61,115 nt of DNA from an uncultured Bacteroidia bacterium (GTDB lineage: Bacteria > Bacteroidota > Bacteroidia > Bacteroidales > F082), in assembly GCA_902801625.1 (NCBI GenBank), contig CADCJI010000016.1, positions 1 to 61,115 of the forward strand. The letters run 5' to 3'. A program made the position numbers and the translations under genes. Below the pieces are notes generated by a model, which saw nothing but the letters and a program-made list of their open reading frames with translations, did not search any database and was not told the origin of the DNA. The stretch's first letter is position 1; every line of letters starts with the position of its first letter. Of this stretch, positions 30,666 to 41,885 are shown piece by piece.

Positions 30666-32537
30666 TTAGTCCACGCGTTTATGAAGATACGAGTTCTCCC
30701 CGCTAATGCCGTATTGGGAAGCCGAATAATCCGACAATTCCTCATCGGCTTGGTTGATTTCCACATTGCGGCGTAAATAGGCGGGTTGGTTTTCCAGTTC
30801 CTCCAATCCCCTTGCCGTCCTGAAATTCATGCTCAAGGCACGCAGACGCTGCTTCTTCAGCTGCTCTTTCGGGTCGGCTTGCTTGGCTTTCTTGGCCTCC
30901 AACACGGCGATTTCCTGCTCGGCCTTGGCTTGAACCTCTTCCTGAGTCATGATGCGCGAGGTGATTTCGAAACCGTCATCATCGTTACTGCTGCTTGAGC
31001 GGAAGGGATTGTCGAACACCCTCACCACTGGTTTTTCCTCTTCATAATGGACCGTGCGAGGTGTTTCTGGAACAGGAGCTGGTGTTGGTTCAATGGTTGG
31101 CTCGAAGAGCGGTGTGTCGTCTTCTGTAGATTGGGTCGGCCCTTCGACGGGCTCAGGGGCCTTAGGTTCGACAGGCTCAACGGCCTTAGGTTTTTCGGTG
31201 ATATTGGTCGGCCCTTCGACAGGCTCAGGGACCTTTGGCTCGACAGGCTCAGGGACCTCGGTAACTGGAGTGAACAAGGAATGGACCGTCTTTTCTTCAT
31301 GTTTTTCAACGGGCTGTTCTTCCTTAGGGAACATCTTCTCAACCTCGGTAGCTGCAACTGAGCCCACAGCCAGATTTGCCAGCTGGGCAGGTCCTTCGAC
31401 CTTTCGGCTCTGCTCAGGAACCTCAGGGGTCTCAGTTGTCTCGCCTTTCACCTTGCCACTCAAGTCGTAAACCTTCTTCGGCTGGACAGGACCGGCAGGA
31501 TTGACAGGGTTCTGCTTTTCGGCAATAACGGCACTGTAAGGCTTGGCATCGTGGTTGAAGCCCGTGGCAATCAAGGTGACACTTAGAGCCTCACCGAGGC
31601 TTTCGTCAGTGCCATTACCCCAAATGACATCGGAATTGTTGCCACAAGCGTTCTGTGCAATTTCGAGAATCTCGTCCACTTCGTCCAAGGAAACTTCATC
31701 AGTACCCGAGGTGATATAAAGTAGGATGTTCTTCGCGCCCTCAATGTTCGAGTCGTTAAGCAATGGCGAATGGATGGCGTCTTTGATAGCCTTCTCGGCG
31801 CGGTTCTCGCCTTCGGCGACACCCGAGCCCATGATGGCCTTGCCACTGTCTTTCATGACAGTCTTCACATCCTCGAAGTCGACATTGACATAACCAGGCA
31901 CGGTGATGATTTCAGCGATGCCTCGGGCTGCCGTAGCCAACACATCGTCAGCCTTCTTGAAAGCTTCGGAAAGCTTCATGTTGCCGTATTGGTCACGCAG
32001 TTTGTCGGTGCTAATGAGTATGAGCGTGTCAACACACTTCTTCAGCTCATCAATGCCCGCCAAGGCTTGCAGCTTGCGGCGACGACCTTCGCGTTCCATA
32101 GGCATGGTGACAATGCCCACGGTAAGGATGCCTTTTTCCTTGGCCATCTTGGCCACGACAGGAGCAGCACCAGTGCCCGTACCACCACCCATACCAGCGG
32201 TGACAAACAGCATTTTGGTATCATCGTCCATCAAAGCCTCAAGCTCGTCACGGCTCATTTCGGCGGCTTCGCGACCGATGTTGGGGTCGTTGCCGGCACC
32301 CAACTCGCGTTTGCCAAGGTGAACGGTGGTCTTGACCTTACTCTTCAGCAAAGCTTGATGGTCAGTATTGCAAAGTACGAAGTCGACGCCTTGGATGCCT
32401 TCCTCCATCATGTGATTGACGGCATTGCCGCCGCCACCACCGACGCCGATGACTTTGATATAGTTGGGTTTCTCCACATCAACGGGCTTGAACAACTCGT
32501 TTTGGGCGTTTGGGTTAGTCATGTAGTCTTCTGCCAT
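30666..32537 (-). CDS. ftsZ: Cell division protein FtsZ with long repeat-bearing linker
   Basis: Tubulin-like GTPase that forms the Z ring. The N-terminal 340 residues are canonical, with GVGGGGGNAVNHM, the tubulin signature GGGTGTGAAP and NVDFEDVKTVM. An intrinsically disordered linker of about 230 residues follows, then the conserved C-terminal peptide region NQPAYLRRNVEI that binds FtsA. At 623 residues it is far longer than E. coli FtsZ (383). Part of the linker is built from PEPVEGP/PEPVEPK units, encoded by copies of a palindromic DNA repeat seen elsewhere in the cluster. Last gene of the dcw operon, 20 bases after ftsA. Confidence 0.98.
   Translation of the reverse strand: MAEDYMTNPNAQNELFKPVDVEKPNYIKVIGVGGGGGNAVNHMMEEGIQGVDFVLCNTDHQALLKSKVKTTVHLGKRELGAGNDPNIGREAAEMSRDELEALMDDDTKMLFVTAGMGGGTGTGAAPVVAKMAKEKGILTVGIVTMPMEREGRRRKLQALAGIDELKKCVDTLILISTDKLRDQYGNMKLSEAFKKADDVLATAARGIAEIITVPGYVNVDFEDVKTVMKDSGKAIMGSGVAEGENRAEKAIKDAIHSPLLNDSNIEGAKNILLYITSGTDEVSLDEVDEILEIAQNACGNNSDVIWGNGTDESLGEALSVTLIATGFNHDAKPYSAVIAEKQNPVNPAGPVQPKKVYDLSGKVKGETTETPEVPEQSRKVEGPAQLANLAVGSVAATEVEKMFPKEEQPVEKHEEKTVHSLFTPVTEVPEPVEPKVPEPVEGPTNITEKPKAVEPVEPKAPEPVEGPTQSTEDDTPLFEPTIEPTPAPVPETPRTVHYEEEKPVVRVFDNPFRSSSSNDDDGFEITSRIMTQEEVQAKAEQEIAVLEAKKAKQADPKEQLKKQRLRALSMNFRTARGLEELENQPAYLRRNVEINQADEELSDYSASQYGISGENSYLHKRVD
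31141..31257. repeat. Palindromic-repeat copies inside ftsZ linker
   Basis: Four half-element copies of TTCGACAGGCTCAGGGAC-type sequence at about 31141-31160, 31165-31182, 31212-31232 and 31237-31257, all in the same orientation. A more diverged relative lies at 31391-31423. Read on the minus strand they encode PEPVEG, EPVEPK and (the diverged copy) EQSRKVEGP. The same repeat forms a complete hairpin at 36046-36089. Confidence 0.75.
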
Positions 32538-33929: not shown

Positions 33930-34694
33930 TTATCGTTTTGTACAGACTATTTGATTTTTATAATTCAGATTGATGCTTTTCAAGGTCTTGGTCTCAGGGC
34001 TCTCGATGCGCTGCTTCATGAAGTTCTCCAATCGTCTCAGCTTGTCGGCGGCATCGCAAGTGTCGCCCACAATCACCCTACCTTCAAAGCCCTTCACGGT
34101 GAGCTCAAACTGGTTTCTTTTGTTACAATACAGCTGCCCAACGCATTGTCTCACAAAGTCGTTTCCCTCAATGGCTTCACACCAATGCAAGGCATTGAGC
34201 AAGTTCCTATCGCTGCCAAGAGTGTCGGTGAGTTGATAGTTGACCGTGTCATGCCTAAGCTCAAAATTGCCGCTGGCCACCAACACATAGGGTGTATAGG
34301 TACGGCTCGAAGGGATAACGAAACCTTCGCGAGTGACATAGACAGAATGTCCGTCCTTGCCAAACACCCTAAACCAAGGCTCATACTCCTTGAAACTGAC
34401 TTTAAGGGTTCCGTCAAGGTCAACATAAGAGGTGCTATTCTCAATCCACGAATTGTTTTCCATCAGCTTCTGGATAGCAATCATATTGACAGTGCCGATG
34501 TTCGACTTGCCACAAATCCGTCCAATTTCGTCGTGCAATGCCGTCTTCCTGACAAAGCCCGTATCAGCAGCTGGAATCAGCTGGATTGACTTCAAAGGCG
34601 TGGTCAAGTAGTTCTCTCTCGCGAAGACGAACAAAACCACCAGTCCAGCGGCTGTGGCAACCCACAATAATATGCTCAATATCTTCTTTACCAT
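33930..34694 (-). CDS. ftsQ: Cell division protein FtsQ
   Basis: 254-residue bitopic inner-membrane protein: a single N-terminal membrane segment (about residues 5-24), then a periplasmic POTRA-like part and beta domain (NSWIENSTSYVDLDGTLKVSFKEYEPWFRVF). It links FtsL/B to the divisome. Sequence is poorly conserved outside this pattern, as usual for Bacteroidetes FtsQ. Its start overlaps the end of murC by 7 bases and it ends 4 bases before ftsA. Confidence 0.9.
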   Translation of the reverse strand: MVKKILSILLWVATAAGLVVLFVFARENYLTTPLKSIQLIPAADTGFVRKTALHDEIGRICGKSNIGTVNMIAIQKLMENNSWIENSTSYVDLDGTLKVSFKEYEPWFRVFGKDGHSVYVTREGFVIPSSRTYTPYVLVASGNFELRHDTVNYQLTDTLGSDRNLLNALHWCEAIEGNDFVRQCVGQLYCNKRNQFELTVKGFEGRVIVGDTCDAADKLRRLENFMKQRIESPETKTLKSINLNYKNQIVCTKR

Positions 34695-36031
34695 GTCTTT
34701 ATCAGTTCTTCAAGGGGTTCAACAAAACGGTCGATGTCGCCAGCACCCATCGTAATCAGCAACTCAGGCTTTTCGCTGTCAATCAAGCCGATAAGCTCCG
34801 ACTTTGAGCAGACTCTCTTGTTAGCCATCGGAACCTTTTCCAACAAGGCGGAAGAGGTGATGCCTTCAATAGGCTGCTCACGGGCAGGATAGATGTCCAA
34901 GAGAATAAGTTCGTCGGCCAAGGCCAAAACCGATGCAAATTCGTCCATGAAATCGCGGGTACGGCTGAACAAATGGGGTTGGAAAACCAATGTGATGCGT
35001 TTTCCAAGATATGAAGCTCTCACGGCAGTCAAGCAGGAACGAATTTCCTCAGGATGATGCGCGTAATCATCTATATAGCAATGTTTTTCATTGTTGACAC
35101 GAATATCGAAACGACGCTTCACACCTTTGAAGCTCGACAAAGCCTCGGCAATGGCCTGTGCAGGCAATCCCACTTGACGAGTTGCAATGAAGGCAGCCGT
35201 GGCATTCAGCACATTGTGGTCACCCGCCATAGGCAACCTAACCTCAGTCTTTTGGCCTTTGCCTTCAATCACGAAATCCGTGACACCTTTTTCTGACTTG
35301 ACGACTTCGGCACGGTAGTCACAAGTTTCACCAAAGCCGAAACGAATGCAGTTCTCCACTTCGATGTCCAAGCCCTCTTTGACGATGACTTTATCCTTTG
35401 TGAGATGCGCGAAGTCGTTGAAACTCTGCACCAAATGCTTTCGATCGCCATAGATGTCCAAGTGGTCGGCATCGATGGAGTTGATGATGCTAATGTTAGG
35501 ATGGAGTCGCAGGAAGGAATGGTCAAACTCATCGGCCTCCACAACCAAAGTGCTATCCGTGCCTTCACCCAAAAGTAGGTTGCTATTGAAGTTATTGGCA
35601 ATGCCGCCGATGAAGGCGGTGGTGTTCACTTTGCATTGATGCATAATATGAGCAACCATAGCAGTAGTCGTGGTCTTACCATGTGTGCCAGCCACCGCGA
35701 TGGTGAAGTGACCTTCCGTGATTTTGCCCAAAGCTTCAGCGCGTTTCAAAATCGGTAGATTGCGCTGTCTGAGAGTCTCAAACTCTTTGAGGTCGTACGG
35801 CACTGCAGGAGTGTAGATGACCGACTCAATGAGGGCGGGCAATAAGTTGTTGTTATCTTCATAATGGATTGCCACGCCCTCATTTTCCAATTGCCGAGTC
35901 AGCGGAGAAGGCGTGCGGTCGTAACCTGCCACTGTGTAGCCCAGGCTACGGTAATACCGAGCCAAGGCGCTCATTCCGATGCCGCCAATGCCTAAAAAAT
36001 AAATCGTATGTCCTTCTCCGTGTTTCATCAT
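34688..36031 (-). CDS. murC: UDP-N-acetylmuramate--L-alanine ligase MurC
   Basis: 447-residue cytoplasmic Mur ligase that adds L-Ala to UDP-MurNAc. N domain has IYFLGIGGIGMSALARYY. The central ATPase has VAGTHGKTTTTAMVAHIM and EADEFDHSFLRL. The C domain has YAHHPEEIRSCL and VFQPHLFSRT. The second Met (MKHGEG) may be the true start. Unlike its neighbours it is separated from murG by 84 bases, which hold a palindromic repeat. Confidence 0.97.
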   Translation of the reverse strand: MMKHGEGHTIYFLGIGGIGMSALARYYRSLGYTVAGYDRTPSPLTRQLENEGVAIHYEDNNNLLPALIESVIYTPAVPYDLKEFETLRQRNLPILKRAEALGKITEGHFTIAVAGTHGKTTTTAMVAHIMHQCKVNTTAFIGGIANNFNSNLLLGEGTDSTLVVEADEFDHSFLRLHPNISIINSIDADHLDIYGDRKHLVQSFNDFAHLTKDKVIVKEGLDIEVENCIRFGFGETCDYRAEVVKSEKGVTDFVIEGKGQKTEVRLPMAGDHNVLNATAAFIATRQVGLPAQAIAEALSSFKGVKRRFDIRVNNEKHCYIDDYAHHPEEIRSCLTAVRASYLGKRITLVFQPHLFSRTRDFMDEFASVLALADELILLDIYPAREQPIEGITSSALLEKVPMANKRVCSKSELIGLIDSEKPELLITMGAGDIDRFVEPLEELIKTW

Positions 36032-36115: not shown

Positions 36116-37213
36116 TCAAACAATAACATTAACAATTTGATCTACAATATCTTCGGCAGCATTCGGTCGGGCGAACTTGCCGATGTTTTTACTTAATTTA
36201 GCCTGCAACTCATGATCGTCTTTCAGTCGGAACAAAGCTGGGACGAGTTCTTTCTCCGCATCAGCGTTGCGCACCATAAGGGCGGCTTCCGCATCGACGA
36301 GTTGCTGGGCATTCTTGGTCTGATGATCTTCGGCTGCCGTGGGCAGGGGCACGAAGATGACAGGCTTTTGCACCAAGGCCAATTCCGAGATCGACATAGC
36401 ACCTGCACGCGAGATGACCACATCGGCAAGACCGTATGCCAAATCCATGCGGTCGATGAAGACGGTAGGCTTCACCTGGTTTTCCAAACCCAAAGCTTTC
36501 ACTTCAGCTTGAGCCTGACTAATGTAAGTCTTGCCAGTCTGCCAGATAAGCTGCAAATCGCTGTCCTTGAAAGCTGCAAGTTGCGCACTGATGCCCTTGT
36601 TGATGCCTAAGGCACCTTGACTGCCACCCACAAGCAAGGCGACAGGCTTTGTCGGGTCGAGTTTGAAAAACTCAGCCGCTTCTTCACGAGTGCCATTGAG
36701 GGTGATGTTGGCCCTCAAGGGGTTGCCCGTGAAATGTATCTTCTCGGCAGGAAACCATTGGTCGAGATGGTCGTAGGCCACACAAATGGTTCTTGCCTTC
36801 TTTCCTACATTGCGGTTAGTCTTGCCCGGATAGGAGTTCTGTTCCTGAATGACAGTTGGGATGCCAAGGTAATTGGCAGCCATCAAGGTAGGTCCGCTGG
36901 CAAACCCACCAACGCCAATCACCACATCGGGCTTGAAGCGCTTCAGGATAGCAATGGCATGGTTGATACTACTCGTTAGCTTTAAGGGAAGCAAAAGCGA
37001 CTTGATATCTCTGGTCATTCCACTAATCCACAGTCCCTCAATACGATAGCCGGCCTTAGGCACTCTTTCCATCTCCATGCGGCCTTTTGCACCGATAAAG
37101 AGGATGTCGGCCTCGGGAAACCTCCGTTTCAAGGCATCTGCAATGGCAATGGCGGGAAAGATGTGACCGCCTGTGCCACCACCACTAATCACGACTTTCA
37201 GGTTCTCTTTCAT
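36116..37213 (-). CDS. murG: Lipid II synthase MurG (GlcNAc transferase)
   Basis: 365-residue GT-B glycosyltransferase on the inner face of the membrane that turns lipid I into lipid II. Glycine-rich loops: ISGGGTGGHIFPAIAIADAL at the N terminus, IGVGGFASGPTLMAANYLGIP, VGGSQGALGIN in the C domain. UDP-GlcNAc pocket: VISRAGAMSISELALVQKPVIFVPLP. Its start overlaps the end of ftsW by 29 bases, a strong sign of coupled translation. Confidence 0.97.
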   Translation of the reverse strand: MKENLKVVISGGGTGGHIFPAIAIADALKRRFPEADILFIGAKGRMEMERVPKAGYRIEGLWISGMTRDIKSLLLPLKLTSSINHAIAILKRFKPDVVIGVGGFASGPTLMAANYLGIPTVIQEQNSYPGKTNRNVGKKARTICVAYDHLDQWFPAEKIHFTGNPLRANITLNGTREEAAEFFKLDPTKPVALLVGGSQGALGINKGISAQLAAFKDSDLQLIWQTGKTYISQAQAEVKALGLENQVKPTVFIDRMDLAYGLADVVISRAGAMSISELALVQKPVIFVPLPTAAEDHQTKNAQQLVDAEAALMVRNADAEKELVPALFRLKDDHELQAKLSKNIGKFARPNAAEDIVDQIVNVIV

Positions 37214-38474
37214 CTTCAGTAGTTTCTGTAAGTGCTTGTATCTCTTGTTCTTTATTCATTTCCTCGTCTTCCATGCTCCGCGTAACGCTCAATATCATGC
37301 CCAAGATAAGACCCGTGGCCATCAACGAGGTACCGCCCATGCTTACCATAGGTAAGGGCTGTCCCGTGACCGGCAGCAATCCTATGGAAACACCCATGTT
37401 AATCATCGCCTGCAAAATGACCAAGAATCCCAATCCGAAGGCCATCAGCGCGCCAAAACTGAGCGGACGCTTGATGACGATGCGCAACACCCGAGTGAAG
37501 AGAATCACATAGAGCAGTAACACGACAATACCACCAATGAGCCCATATTCCTCTACAATGATGGCATAGATGAAATCGGAATAAGGGTGCGGCAAGAAGT
37601 TTCGCTGCTCACTCTTTCCGGGACCTTTTCCGAAGACCGAACTCGATGCCACAGCTATGTCGGCATAGGTGCGTTGCAAGTGCTTGTCATCAAAAGGATC
37701 GACTTTCTCCTTGTCCTCTCCCATCGACTTCAGGCGGTTGGTCCAAGTCTGGATTCGATTCTGCTTTGCCTTGTATTCAACACTCACCTCGCCCTTAGCC
37801 AAAGCTTCCTGCTGAGCCTTCACGCCACGATTGTTCAGGATGCTGGTCTTGGCAGCATCGAAGCCCAAATAAGCGGCCATGCCGACAATACAAATCCCGA
37901 TAAGTGCCAAGATGTGCAGGATCTTTACCCTACCGATGAAAAGCAGTACCATGCAAACCAGCACTAAAATGAGAGCGGTAGAAAGGTTCTCGGAGAAAAT
38001 CAAGGCGGCTGTCAACAGGATGGGCGCGGCCAGTTTAATCAGGAAGTCTTTGAAAAGATAAACCGAGCCTTCCATCATGATGATTTGGCGCGACAAATAG
38101 GTGATAAGGATGATTTTGGCCATCTCACTGGGCTGGAACGAAAATCCTCCAAGGTTGATGGAGCGGCTGGCATCGTTGATGTTGCGCCCGAACACCAAAG
38201 TGTAGAGCAACAAGGCCAAACTGGGAATCATCAACAGCAAGGCTAGTTTCGCATAGCGCTTGTAGTTGATTCGCGAGGCACCAATCATCATCAGAATGCC
38301 GAAAACCAGCATACCCAGATGCTTCATCATCAGGCGACCCGTGTTGCCATCGTATTTTGAGACTGCCAAGACGCTGGTGGCGCTATACACCACAATCAGC
38401 GAGATGATGCTCAAAATCAAGGCGACAATCCAAATCACCTTGTCACCCTTCATTATTTTATTGATGACGTTCAT
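37185..38474 (-). CDS. ftsW: FtsW, SEDS septal peptidoglycan polymerase
   Basis: 429-residue SEDS-family membrane protein with about ten transmembrane helices, the glycosyltransferase that works with FtsI at the septum. Family features: GGFSFQPSEMAKIILI, the large extracellular loop about residues 205-280, and TGQPLPMVSMGGTSLMATGLILG near the end. A polar Glu-rich tail follows. The start overlaps the end of the murD fragment by 17 bases and the end overlaps murG by 29. Confidence 0.96.
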   Translation of the reverse strand: MNVINKIMKGDKVIWIVALILSIISLIVVYSATSVLAVSKYDGNTGRLMMKHLGMLVFGILMMIGASRINYKRYAKLALLLMIPSLALLLYTLVFGRNINDASRSINLGGFSFQPSEMAKIILITYLSRQIIMMEGSVYLFKDFLIKLAAPILLTAALIFSENLSTALILVLVCMVLLFIGRVKILHILALIGICIVGMAAYLGFDAAKTSILNNRGVKAQQEALAKGEVSVEYKAKQNRIQTWTNRLKSMGEDKEKVDPFDDKHLQRTYADIAVASSSVFGKGPGKSEQRNFLPHPYSDFIYAIIVEEYGLIGGIVVLLLYVILFTRVLRIVIKRPLSFGALMAFGLGFLVILQAMINMGVSIGLLPVTGQPLPMVSMGGTSLMATGLILGMILSVTRSMEDEEMNKEQEIQALTETTEDEREPESRD

Positions 38475-39021
38475 GCTCCATTCTCCTTACAGTTTCCGTG
38501 AATTGGTTGCCGCGATCGGTATAGGTCTCCCCTATCGCCGATTTGCAGGCAGGCGAAAACAGCACAATGTCGTTGTCCTGGGCAAGCAAAGATGCCAAAT
38601 TGACCGCTTCATCGATGCTCTCAACTTCAAACAAATCCGTTATGTCTTTATGAAAAGCCTTCTTCAACTTGGCATTGCCCTCACCAACACAAACCATGGC
38701 TCTCACCTTTTGCTTCACGACCTTTTTCAAGTCCTTGAAATCAGCCATACTGTCGTCACCACCCACAATCCAAACGACAGGCTTGACGATGTTCTGGAAG
38801 GTGAACCAAGTGGCGTTGACATTTTCGGCACGCGAGTCGTCGTAATACATCACGCCGTCAACGGTGGCAATATACTCCTGACGATGGTCGACAGTATTCA
38901 AGTCACTGAGGCTCAGCTTAATGTTCTCTTTCCTAATTTGCAAAACCTTTGACGATATGCCGTCTACCATAGTGGTGGGACATTTTAATCTGGTGTTGGT
39001 TAATTCTTCGTAGTATGTCAT
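38458..39021 (-). CDS. murD: MurD C-terminal fragment (truncated, probably not a working ligase)
   Basis: 187 residues in the murD position between mraY and ftsW. Only the end of the central domain (about residues 10-45, ISSKVLQIRKENIKLSLSDL) and the C-terminal Mur-ligase domain (about 46-180, DHRQEY, KPVVWIVGG, YTDRGNQF) are present. The N domain and the whole ATP-binding core with GKT are absent. An in-frame stop lies upstream, and only 125 bases separate it from mraY. Substrate motifs are altered: usual DSKATN reads DSRAEN, and usual SPACASFD reads SPACKSAI. Full MurD is about 440 residues. It is either a decaying pseudogene or a repurposed domain; a full MurD should exist elsewhere. Assembly error at the adjacent repeats is possible. 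Confidence 0.85.
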   Translation of the reverse strand: MTYYEELTNTRLKCPTTMVDGISSKVLQIRKENIKLSLSDLNTVDHRQEYIATVDGVMYYDDSRAENVNATWFTFQNIVKPVVWIVGGDDSMADFKDLKKVVKQKVRAMVCVGEGNAKLKKAFHKDITDLFEVESIDEAVNLASLLAQDNDIVLFSPACKSAIGETYTDRGNQFTETVRRMEHERHQ

Positions 39022-39030
39022 TTTTGGTTT

Positions 39031-39146
39031 AGAGTTTAGAGTTCAGAGTTTAGAGTTTAGAGTCAGTTGAGAGTTTAGAGTTGTTCAGTTAAAAAGTGCG
39101 ATTCTTGAATTTTGAATTTTGAATTTTGAATCTTTGAATCTTTAAT
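39031..39146. repeat. Simple-sequence repeats at the murD deletion point
   Basis: Several copies of an AGTTTAGAG-type unit (39031-39082) are followed by GAATTTT/GAATCTT units (39107-39140). The tract lies exactly between mraY and the truncated murD and could have promoted recombination. Confidence 0.7.
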
Positions 39147-40424
39147 CTATCTGATTTTAAATGTAATAAGGGTGAATGCAGCCAGCAATATGGTGACGAT
39201 CCAAAACCGAATGGTGATCTTCACCTCATGATGGACGGTATTGAAGCCCTCACCACGCCCCTTGAAAGTGACGGTGGAGTTAGGCCATGCTTTCTTGAAG
39301 TCACTATAGCTCGTTCTGAAGTGGTCATGCAAGGGGCCTTTCTTCCATATGCGGTGCTTCTTGCCTGTCTTGACAAAGCGCTTCACATCCAAGTCGGAAA
39401 GAATCTCAAACAGGAACACGCCGCAAAGCAAAGGCAACAGCAACTCCTTGTGCATAATGATAGCCGACACAGCGATGATGCCACCGATGGTCAGGCTACC
39501 TGTGTCACCCATGAAAATCTGAGCTGGGAAAGAGTTAAACCACAAGAAGCCGACAAGGGCACCTACAAAAGCAGCCATAAACACGACAAGTTCCTCACTT
39601 CCTGGGATATACATCACATCGAAATGGCTAGCTGTGACCGCATTACTGGAGATATAAGCCAAAATGACCAATGTGATTCCTATGATGGCCGAATTGCCCG
39701 AAGCCATACCATCCATACCATCGTTGAGATTGGAGCCGTTGCTGACAGCTGCCACGACAAAGACAGTAAGCAGCACAAAGAAAATCCATGCAAGGTTGTA
39801 CATCCACTTGGGACCAGCCCACTTGAACAAGTCGGCATAGTTGAGGTTGTGGTTTTTCAGGAACGGGATAGTAGTCCTTGTCGACTTCACGTCGGGACTC
39901 TTCACCACGATTTCCTTGTTGTCCTCAATCTTCAACTGGACAGTCTCGTTGATTTGCACCGCAGGGCTGAAACGCAAGGTCAAGCCGACAAGCAGACCGA
40001 GCAGAATCTGTCCGCCTAACTTTACTGCAGGCTTCAGTCCGTCTTTCTTGCCCCTAAAGGTCTTCACAAAGTCATCGGCAAATCCTAAAATACCAAGAAT
40101 CAACGTAGTGGCAATCATCAATAGGGTGTAAACACTATGAAGCTTGCACACCAAAAGCACTGGGATCAAAATGGCGGCAATAATGATTACGCCACCCATA
40201 GTGGGTACACCAACTTTCTTGGTGTTATATGGATCAATGGACTCATCACGCTGGGTCTCAACGATTTTCTTACGCTTCAACATCTTGATGAACCAATTGC
40301 CAAACCACACGGCCACAACCAATGAGAGGATGATGGCAACGGCAGCCCGGAAGGTGACGTAGTTGAACACACCCGCACCCGGAAAATCGCATTGTTGCAG
40401 ATAATTGAACAGATAGTACAACAT
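39147..40424 (-). CDS. mraY: Phospho-MurNAc-pentapeptide translocase MraY
   Basis: 425-residue polytopic membrane enzyme that makes lipid I from UDP-MurNAc-pentapeptide and undecaprenyl phosphate. Conserved pieces: GVPTMGGVIIIAAILIP, GFADDFVKTFRGKKDGL (Asp pair), NLNDGMDGMASG, and FMGDTGSLTIGG. It is longer than E. coli MraY (360) because of an extracytoplasmic insertion at about residues 155-200, as in other Bacteroidetes. The last helix and the C-terminal HHDHF-like segment (GPLHDHFRTSY) are intact. It ends at the repeat tract before the murD fragment. Confidence 0.96.
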   Translation of the reverse strand: MLYYLFNYLQQCDFPGAGVFNYVTFRAAVAIILSLVVAVWFGNWFIKMLKRKKIVETQRDESIDPYNTKKVGVPTMGGVIIIAAILIPVLLVCKLHSVYTLLMIATTLILGILGFADDFVKTFRGKKDGLKPAVKLGGQILLGLLVGLTLRFSPAVQINETVQLKIEDNKEIVVKSPDVKSTRTTIPFLKNHNLNYADLFKWAGPKWMYNLAWIFFVLLTVFVVAAVSNGSNLNDGMDGMASGNSAIIGITLVILAYISSNAVTASHFDVMYIPGSEELVVFMAAFVGALVGFLWFNSFPAQIFMGDTGSLTIGGIIAVSAIIMHKELLLPLLCGVFLFEILSDLDVKRFVKTGKKHRIWKKGPLHDHFRTSYSDFKKAWPNSTVTFKGRGEGFNTVHHEVKITIRFWIVTILLAAFTLITFKIR

Positions 40425-40427
40425 GGC

Positions 40428-41885
40428 TTATGCCTCCTTCAATGCTTCCGACAACACTTCCTTGTCGTCGAAATGGTTCTTTACTCCGTTGATTTCCTGA
40501 TAGTTCTCATGACCTTTGCCTGCCAAAAGGATGATGTCACCCCGTTTAGCCAAGGCCACAGCAGTACGAATTGCCTCGCGACGGTTGGTAATGCTCAACA
40601 CCTTGCCACGGTCTTCTTCGGCCACACCAGCTTTCATCTGACGAATAATCTCATCAGGGTCTTCGTTGCGAGGATTGTCGCTGGTGAGGATGACGCGGTC
40701 ACTGAGCTTCACTGCAACGGCAGCCATCTCGGGACGCTTTGTGGTGTCACGGTTGCCGCCACAACCCACCACTGTGATGAGCGTCTCCTTGTGGCAACGC
40801 ACCTCATTGATGGTCACCAACACATTCTCCAATGCGTCAGGCGTGTGGGCATAGTCAACAATACCGACAATACCCTGCTCAGAATGCACCATGTCGAAAC
40901 GACCATTAGCACCACGCAACTTGCTGATTTCGACTAACAATTCATCCTTATCAAAACCCAAAGCAGTAGCCGCGCCATAAATAGCCAACAGATTACTCGC
41001 ATTGAAGCCACCGACGAGCTGAGTGAACATCTCTGTACCATTCACCTTAAGCAACATACCAGCGAAATGGCTTTCCATTATGACACCTTTGAAGTCGGCA
41101 TCGTGTTTCAAGGCATAGCTCAACTTGCGGGCCTGCGTGTTTTGCAGCATAAACGCGCCGTTCTTGTCATCCAAGTTGGTCAATGCGAATGCGGACTGCG
41201 GCAAACCGTCGAAGAACTTCTTCTTGGCGTTGCGATAGTTGGCCATGGTCTTATGGTAGTCGAGGTGGTCGTGCGTCAAGTTAGTGAAGATGCCACCAGC
41301 GAAATGCAATCCCGCGATGCGGTCTTGCGCAACACTGTGGGAGCTCACCTCCATAAAAGCGAATTCACAGCCCTTGTCAACCATCTGCTGCAACAAGGTG
41401 TTCAGCTCGATAGGATCAGGAGTCGTGTGCGTTGAAGGAACAACCTCACGGTTGACGATGTTCTCAATCGTCGAGAGCAAACCGCAACTATAGCCCGCTT
41501 CAGTGAAAAGCCTATATAATAAGGTGGCGATGGTGGTCTTGCCATTGGTACCTGTCACGCCCACCAACTTCAACTTCTCCGAAGGATTGCCGAAGAAATT
41601 GGAAGCGCCAACACCCAATACGTATGCTGAGTTATCTACTTTCACGTAGGTGACATTTTCAGCTTTTTTACGGGGCAGTTTCTCACACACAATCACCGAA
41701 GCGCCTTTTTCGATGGCACCGTCAATGTAGTCGTGGCCATCGACCTGCGTACCTTTGACGGCAAAAAACAAGGTGCCTTGGCTTACCTTACGGGAATCGA
41801 AAGTGATGTCGGCAACATCGACGTCTTTCTCTCCAACGATCTCCAAAAGGTTGCAATTCGTCAATATGTCTTTGAGTTTCATCAT
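40428..41885 (-). CDS. murE: UDP-MurNAc-tripeptide synthetase MurE (meso-DAP type)
   Basis: 485-residue Mur ligase that adds the third peptide residue. The ATP loop is GVTGTNGKTTIATLLYRLF. The carbamylated-Lys region and SHSVAQDRIAGL are present, and the amino-acid selectivity motif DNPRNEDP specifies meso-diaminopimelate, the expected Bacteroidetes cross-link residue. The start overlaps the ftsI stop by 4 bases. mraY begins 4 bases after its end. Confidence 0.97.
   Translation of the reverse strand: MMKLKDILTNCNLLEIVGEKDVDVADITFDSRKVSQGTLFFAVKGTQVDGHDYIDGAIEKGASVIVCEKLPRKKAENVTYVKVDNSAYVLGVGASNFFGNPSEKLKLVGVTGTNGKTTIATLLYRLFTEAGYSCGLLSTIENIVNREVVPSTHTTPDPIELNTLLQQMVDKGCEFAFMEVSSHSVAQDRIAGLHFAGGIFTNLTHDHLDYHKTMANYRNAKKKFFDGLPQSAFALTNLDDKNGAFMLQNTQARKLSYALKHDADFKGVIMESHFAGMLLKVNGTEMFTQLVGGFNASNLLAIYGAATALGFDKDELLVEISKLRGANGRFDMVHSEQGIVGIVDYAHTPDALENVLVTINEVRCHKETLITVVGCGGNRDTTKRPEMAAVAVKLSDRVILTSDNPRNEDPDEIIRQMKAGVAEEDRGKVLSITNRREAIRTAVALAKRGDIILLAGKGHENYQEINGVKNHFDDKEVLSEALKEA

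What the first reader, a model, noticed from the sequence alone, without database searches (positions are those of the whole stretch)
38458..39146. murD reduced to its C-terminal domain inside an otherwise complete dcw operon
Between mraY and ftsW only 187 codons of MurD remain; the N and ATP-binding domains are gone, yet the frame is open and overlaps ftsW. The remaining domain has changed substrate motifs (DSRAEN for DSKATN, SPACKSAI for SPACASFD). MurD is essential, so a full ligase must lie elsewhere, or an unusual D-Glu-adding enzyme is used, or the fragment has a new role (a regulator or scaffold for the Mur enzymes). A simple-sequence tract marks the truncation point.
Basis: partly seen in the sequence, partly recalled or inferred. 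Interest (0 to 1): 0.75.

Follow-up and report, generated by a model that had tools for sequence, protein, structure and literature searches.

The report
MurD cut down to its tail domain
In many Bacteroidales that appear to attach glutamate to the cell-wall precursor by an alternative route, the usual enzyme gene murD has repeatedly been cut down to the same tail domain, which stays under selection and which uncut relatives may also make from a hidden internal start, so this piece probably has a second job besides catalysis.

Summary
In detail: between mraY and ftsW lies a 187-codon ORF carrying only MurD's C-terminal domain (CTD). It is neither an assembly error nor recent decay. The genome encodes MurD2 and MurL homologues elsewhere (L-Glu ligation, then epimerisation); no glutamate racemase was found. 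In 393 Bacteroidales genomes MurL (123) and MurI (243) never co-occur. Of 122 other MurL+ genomes, 46 have the dcw murD cut to the CTD; of 80 MurI+ genomes tested, none. On a tree of flanking genes the state changes at least 15 times; as irreversible losses, 17 times (11 with weak branches collapsed). Stumps have median dN/dS 0.078; all 56 aligned lost the HNxxN histidine, 45 the glutamate-pocket lysine, but core sites stay. 40 of 56 begin at one Met that is also conserved inside uncut MurD. In uncut MurL+ genes that internal ATG shows start-like synonymous-site signals, predicted and then replicated in a second sample; homologous sites in MurD2 and murC show none, murE a weak one. Best reading: murD became a two-product gene whose CTD product has a non-ligase role, probably docking in the dcw-encoded precursor complex. 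Selection on the CTD is shown; the internal start is inferred; docking is a guess.

The parts
38458..39021 (-). murD stump: stand-alone MurD C-terminal domain protein, 187 aa (end of the central domain, hinge, CTD)
   Evidence: homologous stumps in 46 of 122 other MurL+ Bacteroidales genomes; median dN/dS 0.078 over 19 pairs
39019..39021 (-). start codon of the stump; corresponds to a Met codon conserved inside full-length murD (ATG in 60 of 62 MurL+, 38 of 48 MurI+ genes examined)
38458..38474 (-). 17-nt overlap of the stump with the start of ftsW
39022..39146 (.). mraY-stump gap with imperfect 7-bp repeats; variable in relatives
37185..38474 (-). ftsW
39147..40424 (-). mraY
40428..41885 (-). 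murE, full length
36116..37213 (-). murG
   Evidence: both family 28 glycosyltransferase domains
34688..36031 (-). murC, full length

Best explanation
The ORF encodes a functional, non-catalytic, stand-alone MurD C-terminal domain (call it MurD-C). In this lineage L-Glu is most likely added by MurD2 and epimerised by MurL, both encoded elsewhere, so dcw murD no longer needs to be a ligase (shown by gene content and residues, not by assay). Its 5' part was lost and only the CTD stayed, starting at a methionine already present at the hinge. In MurL+ relatives with an intact murD the same domain is probably already a second product made from that internal start, so truncation removes the ligase product and keeps the other (inferred from synonymous sites). 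Most likely role (guess): MurD-C keeps MurD's docking place in the precursor complex encoded by the dcw operon, close to MraY and FtsW, so that the neighbouring enzymes still assemble or are regulated although the ligation step has moved to MurD2/MurL.
For: Pathway: full-length MurD homologue next to a MurL homologue; MurD2 residues Glu (53 of 54), Arg (54 of 54) and Ile for Lys319 (54 of 54), against Asp, Lys, Lys in 42 of 42 dcw full-length MurDs (residue roles from PMC8788868); MurL and MurI overlap 0 where 76 are expected. Link: stump in 46 of 122 MurL+ against 0 of 80 MurI+ genomes, p = 2e-12, genomes taken as independent. Recurrence: minimum 15 state changes on the flank tree; 17 stump clades if loss is irreversible, 11 with branches under 95 collapsed; one stump clade rejected by AU test, p = 4e-39, in a 32-row subset; CTDs of the f117, f6, f50, f74, f120 and f13 stumps are close to full genes of the same family. 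Function: dN/dS 0.078 against murC 0.068, ftsW 0.062, murG 0.062; of 52 near-invariant CTD sites 23 stay at 80% or more in stumps, 24 at 50-80%, and only H276, N277, N280, K355, G356 fall below 50%; D326 is kept in 56 of 56. Internal start: AT excess in codons +1..+7 after the Met is 0.309, rank 1 of 324 windows; own murD start 0.000, stump starts 0.238, mraY 0.151, ftsW 0.139; homologous sites in MurD2 0.002, murE 0.057, murC -0.026; replicated in 30 new genes. Dcw context: in stump genomes CTD distances track MraY (partial r 0.58) and FtsW (0.56) more than MurD2 (0.26), MurL (0.08) or MurG (-0.29); the only two MurL+ genomes with an assembled mraY and no sign of the dcw murD have mraY outside the dcw order.
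Against: No experiment shows the protein, the internal product or any partner. At least 67 of 122 MurL+ genomes keep a full-length dcw MurD, with the main catalytic residues in 32 of 32 checked, so truncation is not a necessary result. The stump has the highest dN/dS of the six operon genes compared (mraY 0.038, murE 0.029), and its identity to outgroups drops after truncation (mean 0.045, p = 0.02, 9 pairs, mostly f35 and f95). Old stumps are down to 20-38% identity to this one. f78 genomes seem to live without the CTD. G023 (97% complete) and G050 (98%) carry a stump although neither MurD2/MurL nor MurI was found, so the link is not absolute. The MurI+ gene also shows a weak signal at the same Met: its top windows lie at +1..+4 too (0.08-0.10), AT z 0.57, p = 0.018, and A at -3 and -12 is common there as well (0.61, 0.66). 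A at -6, another favoured place, is only 0.18. murG's true start shows hardly any signal (0.026), so the measure is not a clean start detector. In genomes with full murD the CTD also tracks MraY (0.42) and MurD2 (0.28) and hardly FtsW (0.18), and MraY and FtsW are neighbours, so shared history could make the correlation.
Confidence: 0.55

Rival explanations
1. Cis role: the ORF is kept only to carry ribosomes from mraY into ftsW (translational coupling); the amino-acid sequence does not matter.
For: The stump overlaps ftsW or ends within 30 nt of it in 49 of 55 fetched loci; the CTD is absent only where mraY has left the operon order.
Against: dN/dS 0.05-0.23 in all 19 pairs; D326, F439, S420 and P421 kept at 95% or more across 20 families; 53 of 56 stumps are 176-190 aa in lineages truncated separately.
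Confidence: 0.12
2. Regulatory or structural subunit of MurD2 (or MurL): the dcw CTD binds MurD2 and tunes or localises L-Glu ligation.
For: Stumps occur almost only in genomes with MurL; weak distance correlation with MurD2 (0.26).
Against: Stumps in G050 and G023 without detected MurD2/MurL; f78 has MurL but no CTD was found; MurD2 and MurL show no significant rate change at truncation (8 pairs each).
Confidence: 0.2
3. Slow decay: a dispensable remnant that has not yet been lost.
For: Catalytic residues are being lost; identity to outgroups drops by 0.045 on average after truncation.
Against: Strong purifying selection, core sites kept in 20 families, genus-wide retention, same start in separate lineages.
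Confidence: 0.05
4. The synonymous signal at the internal Met reflects slowed translation at a domain boundary for folding, not an internal start.
For: The Met lies at the hinge between the central and C-terminal domains.
Against: Homologous hinges of MurD2 and murC show no such signal and murE only a weak one (0.057, rank 16 of 264); much weaker in MurI+ murD; A-rich, unstructured upstream stretch as at true starts.
Confidence: 0.2

Closest known systems
MurD (UDP-N-acetylmuramoyl-L-alanine--D-glutamate ligase), C-terminal domain
   Same: Homologous along model positions 287-440 of TIGR01087; all 11 PDB sequences matched by the profile are MurD; same operon place.
   Different: No UDP-binding or ATPase domain; HNxxN histidine lost; Lys348 position kept in only 11 of 56 stumps.
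MurD2/MurL pathway of Xanthomonas oryzae (PMC8788868, parts 1 and 2 of 3 read; PMC5808125, passages)
   Same: MurD2 with the Glu and Arg that set L-Glu specificity, MurL homologue, no MurI found.
   Different: The review names Gammaproteobacteria, Alphaproteobacteria and rare actinobacteria, not Bacteroidota, and what I read describes no MurD remnant; the window genome's MurL scores 253 bits, under the Xanthomonadales model's cut-off of 700.
Mur-enzyme complexes scaffolded by MurG/MreB (PMC6420597 and PMC4929429, passages)
   Same: MurD of Thermotoga reported to bind MurG and MreB, giving a possible reason to keep a non-catalytic MurD part.
   Different: The passages seen describe no complex that uses a MurD CTD alone.
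Bacterial genes with in-frame internal starts (recalled, for example infB)
   Same: One gene, long and short product sharing the C terminus.
   Different: Here the long product is lost again and again; my paper searches listed nothing of the kind for murD.

Membership tests
MurD ligase (active) | N-terminal UDP-binding and central ATPase (P-loop) domains | tested here: not met
MurD ligase (active) | HNxxN motif (nucleotide-binding role recalled) | tested here: not met
   His absent in 56 of 56 stumps
MurD ligase (active) | C-terminal glutamate-ligase domain | tested here: met
   PF02875 46.6 bits
MurD2 (L-Glu ligase), gene in L001 | Glu and Arg at the Asp182 and Lys348 positions of E. coli MurD | tested here: met
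MurD2 (L-Glu ligase), gene in L001 | Pro and Phe at the Ala414 and Leu416 positions, as in Xanthomonas MurD2 (no effect on stereospecificity when changed, PMC8788868) | tested here: not met
   Ala, Ser or Pro (31, 21, 2 of 54) and Tyr or Phe (53, 1 of 54)
MurD2 (L-Glu ligase), gene in L001 | L-Glu ligase activity | not testable with these tools
   needs an enzyme assay
MurL epimerase, gene in L001 | near full-length homology to MurL | tested here: met
   NF041275 E 3.6e-75, model positions 5-391 of 447
MurL epimerase, gene in L001 | score over the curated equivalog cut-off | tested here: not met
   253 against 700 bits; the model is named for Xanthomonadales, and none of 393 genomes passes it
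MurD2/MurL pathway | no other D-Glu source (MurI) | tested here: met
   MurI in 0 of 36 genus members and 0 of 123 MurL+ genomes; the own assembly is 84% complete
MurD2/MurL pathway | no D-amino-acid transaminase | tested here: inconclusive
   no match over the cut-off in 80 genomes, weaker matches in 30 of 80; own genome not searched
Internal-start isoform | initiation at the internal Met | tested here: inconclusive
   indirect sequence signals only

The most novel reading that the evidence does not exclude
In MurD2/MurL Bacteroidales the dcw murD is a two-product gene: an internal start makes a free C-terminal domain whose non-ligase role is the part that is hard to lose, and 11 to 17 lineages have thrown away the ligase and kept only that product.
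Probability: 0.5. Interest if true: 0.88.

Novelty: new variant of a known kind. Interest (0 to 1): 0.78.

Why it matters
It would give evidence from evolution, and a clean genetic handle, that a Mur ligase domain has a role apart from catalysis, a question that studies of Mur complexes have left open. It also shows the genes of the MurD2/MurL route in about a third (123 of 393) of sampled Bacteroidales genomes, beyond the taxa in the review that I read, which matters for racemase inhibitors and for annotating gut and rumen genomes. The repeated truncation to one pre-existing start is a natural experiment on how a gene can split its functions.

Tried and rejected
Assembly collapse: rejected, because the same locus is seen in dozens of separate assemblies, one of them a 5.26-Mb contig (G292). 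Recent pseudogene: rejected by dN/dS. Single origin of all stumps: rejected by AU test (rows were chosen from families already known to be mixed). Internal promoter instead of internal start: a TAnnTTTG-like motif lies upstream of the internal Met in 2 of 62 MurL+ genes against 9 of 62 in a control stretch; SD-like in 2 of 62 against 10. Glutamate sensing by the stump: unlikely as a general role, since pocket residues are lost in many older stumps. D-amino-acid transaminase as D-Glu source of genomes with full MurD: TIGR01121 matches (E <= 1e-15, none over cut-off) in 21 of 40 full and 4 of 30 stump genomes, p = 0.0009, and in 5 of 9 MurI+ genomes; suggestive only, since such weak matches may be other class-IV transaminases. 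Mirror-tree and rate tests gave only weak pointers. Paper searches for truncated or stand-alone MurD, MurL/MurD2 with Bacteroidales or Bacteroidota and internal starts with murD or the dcw operon listed no title or abstract that describes this; most subscription papers are not in that library.

Rows dropped: in the MurL+ count, G130, G142 and G414 were set aside as contig-cut; six had no dcw CTD hit: G055, G164, G271 without mraY in the assembly, G195 with murD cut by the contig end, G112 and G216 of f78. Two of 100 rows of the flank tree were not scored (G041, G414). Of 122 MurL+ genomes, the dcw region was fetched for 44 stumps or contig-cut stumps and 32 full genes for the tree and residue counts, and murD alone for 30 more full genes. 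One search used only genomes with all six proteins to hand (22 stump, 18 full). In one search, stump starts were taken only from ORFs under 190 aa (52 of 56). G050 was left out of the stump set. The 80 MurI+ controls are a hand-picked spread of the 243. In one search, 9 of 30 MurI+ genes had no ATG at the site and were not scored for context.

Full report
What is there. The window carries a dcw operon on the minus strand. Between mraY and ftsW lies a 187-aa ORF (38458-39021) that matches only the last third of MurD. It overlaps ftsW by 17 nt. The genome is an assembly of 3.58 Mb, 84% complete; the nearest named relative found is an uncultured Bacteroidales, RUG245, 97% identical in this protein (the rumen origin of RUG names is recalled). 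The genus could not be named from the calls.

The missing step. The same genome has a full-length MurD homologue on another contig (312 bits, over the curated cut-off; [quoted passage not shown] According to PMC8788868 (parts 1 and 2 of 3 read), MurD2 of Xanthomonas adds L-Glu and MurL epimerises it; Glu197 and Arg358 set the L-Glu specificity, and changing Lys319 of E. coli MurD lets it accept L-Glu. In 54 Bacteroidales MurD2 proteins these positions are Glu (53), Arg (54) and Ile in place of the Lys (54); in 42 dcw full-length MurDs they are Asp, Lys and Lys. Two further Xanthomonas MurD2 residues that do not affect stereospecificity are mostly not shared. MurI was found in none of 36 genus members. 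MurL was found in 32 of the 36 at strong scores; G002, G003 and G016 (72, 71 and 77% complete) and G023 (97%) lack it.

Order-wide survey. Of 393 Bacteroidales genomes (own included), 123 have MurL (E <= 1e-20) and 243 have MurI (E <= 1e-25). No genome has both, where 76 would be expected by chance; 27 have neither. In the 122 MurL+ genomes other than the window's, the dcw CTD is in a stump in 46, in a full-length gene in 67, cut by contig ends in 3, and without a hit in 6. Of those six, three have no mraY in the assembly, one has murD cut by a contig end, and two (family f78; 91 and 73% complete) appear to lack it and have mraY away from ftsW and the rest of the dcw order. In 80 MurI+ genomes all 80 hits are full length, in frames of 441 aa or more. 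One other MurI+ genome, G041, shows a 111-aa piece at a contig end besides a full MurD.

Repeated truncation. On a quick tree of MraY, FtsW and MurG for 100 loci (56 stumps, 42 full, 2 unscored) the state changes at least 15 times (direction not inferred). If loss cannot be undone there are 17 stump clades, or 11 when branches under 95 are collapsed and stumps in a polytomy are merged. One of the 17 is G397, placed apart from its family with only 35% of the columns filled, and another is G050. A single stump clade is rejected (p-AU 4e-39 in a 32-row subset of 12 stump and 20 full rows, chosen from mixed families). In f117, f6, f50, f74, f120 and f13 a stump's closest CTD outside its own stump sisters is a full-length gene of its own family, or nearly so (G159); the f95 and f27 stumps are closest to full genes of other families; f35 and f4 are too diverged (under 0.45) to say.

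Same start. 40 of 56 stump ORFs begin at one alignment column and 48 have Met there; that column is Met in 30 of 32 full MurL+ and 17 of 18 full MurI+ proteins of the first sample. 24 of 56 stumps are exactly 182 aa and 53 are 176-190 aa.

Selection. Over 19 close pairs (not independent; seven include the window) the stump's median dN/dS is 0.078 (range 0.054-0.234), the highest of six operon genes but near murC 0.068, ftsW 0.062 and murG 0.062; mraY is 0.038 and murE 0.029. Full-length MurDs of MurL+ genomes keep the main catalytic residues in the 32 checked (P-loop Lys, Glu157, His183, Lys319, Lys348 positions 32 of 32). In stumps (20 families, family-weighted, G050 left out) 23 of 52 near-invariant CTD sites stay at 80% or more, 24 at 50-80%, and five fall below 50%: H276, N277, N280, K355 and G356 in the numbering of the G056 protein, that is the HNxxN motif (nucleotide role recalled) and the Lys348 loop; D326, F439, V370, A403, S420, I349, W336, G377 and P421 stay at 95% or more. 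The Arg302 equivalent is Arg in 45 and Lys in 11 of 56; PMC4816537 (passages) places Arg302 in the hinge that moves this domain.

Internal start. If the CTD alone is useful, uncut genes might already make it. In MurL+ full genes the 20 nt before the internal ATG are as A-rich as before the annotated starts and the region is as unstructured, unlike at other internal ATGs (30 sites). Against synonymous shuffles with each gene's codon usage, mfe z is +0.63 (p = 5.5e-4) and A z +0.92 (p = 8e-4) at 30 MurL+ sites, and -0.30 and -0.01 (p = 0.71, 0.96) at 17 MurI+ sites; other ATGs of MurL+ genes show only a slight A excess (0.23, p = 0.013). I wrote down the prediction, fetched 60 further genes and repeated: MurL+ (30 of 30 ATG) mfe z +0.64 (p = 2.6e-4), A z +1.20 (p = 6e-7); MurI+ (21 of 30 with ATG) mfe z 0.03, A z 0.15 (not significant), AT z 0.57 (p = 0.018). 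Direct MurL+ against MurI+ comparisons give p = 5e-4 and 0.023 for mfe and A in the first sample, 0.022 and 5e-4 in the second; AT does not differ significantly (0.068, 0.15). ATG is kept in 60 of 62 MurL+ and 38 of 48 MurI+ genes (p = 0.0045). Family means of the upstream seven codons (32 families) agree: 28 above zero for A. Along the gene the AT excess peaks at codons +1..+7 after this Met (0.309, rank 1 of 324 windows); in MurI+ genes the top windows also lie at +1..+4 but are small (0.08-0.10). The excess is 0.000 at the annotated start of the same MurL+ genes, 0.129 at that of MurI+ genes, 0.238 at stump starts, 0.151 for mraY, 0.139 for ftsW and only 0.026 for murG; at homologous hinges it is 0.002 in MurD2 (54 genes), 0.057 in murE (50) and -0.026 in murC (38, one genus). 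Bacteroidetes lack SD sequences and favour adenines at -3, -6, -12 and -13 and low structure (PMC6847099, passages); here A is 0.75 at -3, 0.67 at -12 and 0.62 at -13 but 0.18 at -6, and MurI+ genes have 0.61, 0.66, 0.34 and 0.08. These genes are related to each other, so the p-values overstate independence; the family test lessens this only in part.

Role. That the CTD protein is under selection without ligation is shown by sequence. What it does is inferred. The link with an intact dcw order, distance correlation with MraY and FtsW beyond the other proteins in stump genomes, and reports that MurD binds MurG and MreB (PMC6420597 and PMC4929429, passages) point to a docking or regulatory role in the membrane-side precursor complex. 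In genomes with full murD the CTD also tracks MraY (0.42) and MurD2 (0.28) but hardly FtsW (0.18), so this evidence is weak. A MurD2 partner role is the main protein-level rival, but G050 and G023 carry stumps without detected MurD2 or MurL, f78 seems to do without the CTD, and MurD2 and MurL show no significant rate shift at truncation.

Limits. No structure model was obtained.

Noticed in passing
L162 (G050, family f16): Stump between mraY and ftsW in a 98% complete genome with no MurL, no MurI and no full-length MurD at E <= 1e-30; how it adds glutamate is unknown.
   Followed up: partly
L165 (G023, same genus): 97% complete genus member with the stump but no strong MurL hit, no MurD2 at E <= 1e-30 and no MurI; could be one assembly gap over a murD2-murL pair.
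   Followed up: no
27 of 393 Bacteroidales genomes have neither MurL nor MurI at the thresholds used.
   Followed up: no
L269 (G114) and genomes G019, G021, G024, G028, G031, G142, G218, G308, G375: MurD2 and/or MurL matches lie in open frames of 885-996 aa, suggesting fused MurD2-MurL proteins.
   Followed up: no
window 31141-31157, 31213-31229 (ftsZ) and L001 1721-1737, 2937-2953 (murD2, murL): The same short repeat (CCTGAGCCTGTCGAAGG, up to one mismatch) sits in frame inside ftsZ, murD2 and murL, giving PEPVEG-like peptides.
   Followed up: partly
L250, L251 (G112, G216; family f78): mraY lies away from ftsW and the rest of the dcw order, and no MurD CTD of the dcw type was found although MurL is present.
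   Followed up: partly
Weak D-amino-acid transaminase-like matches in 21 of 40 genomes with full murD but 4 of 30 with stumps.
   Followed up: partly
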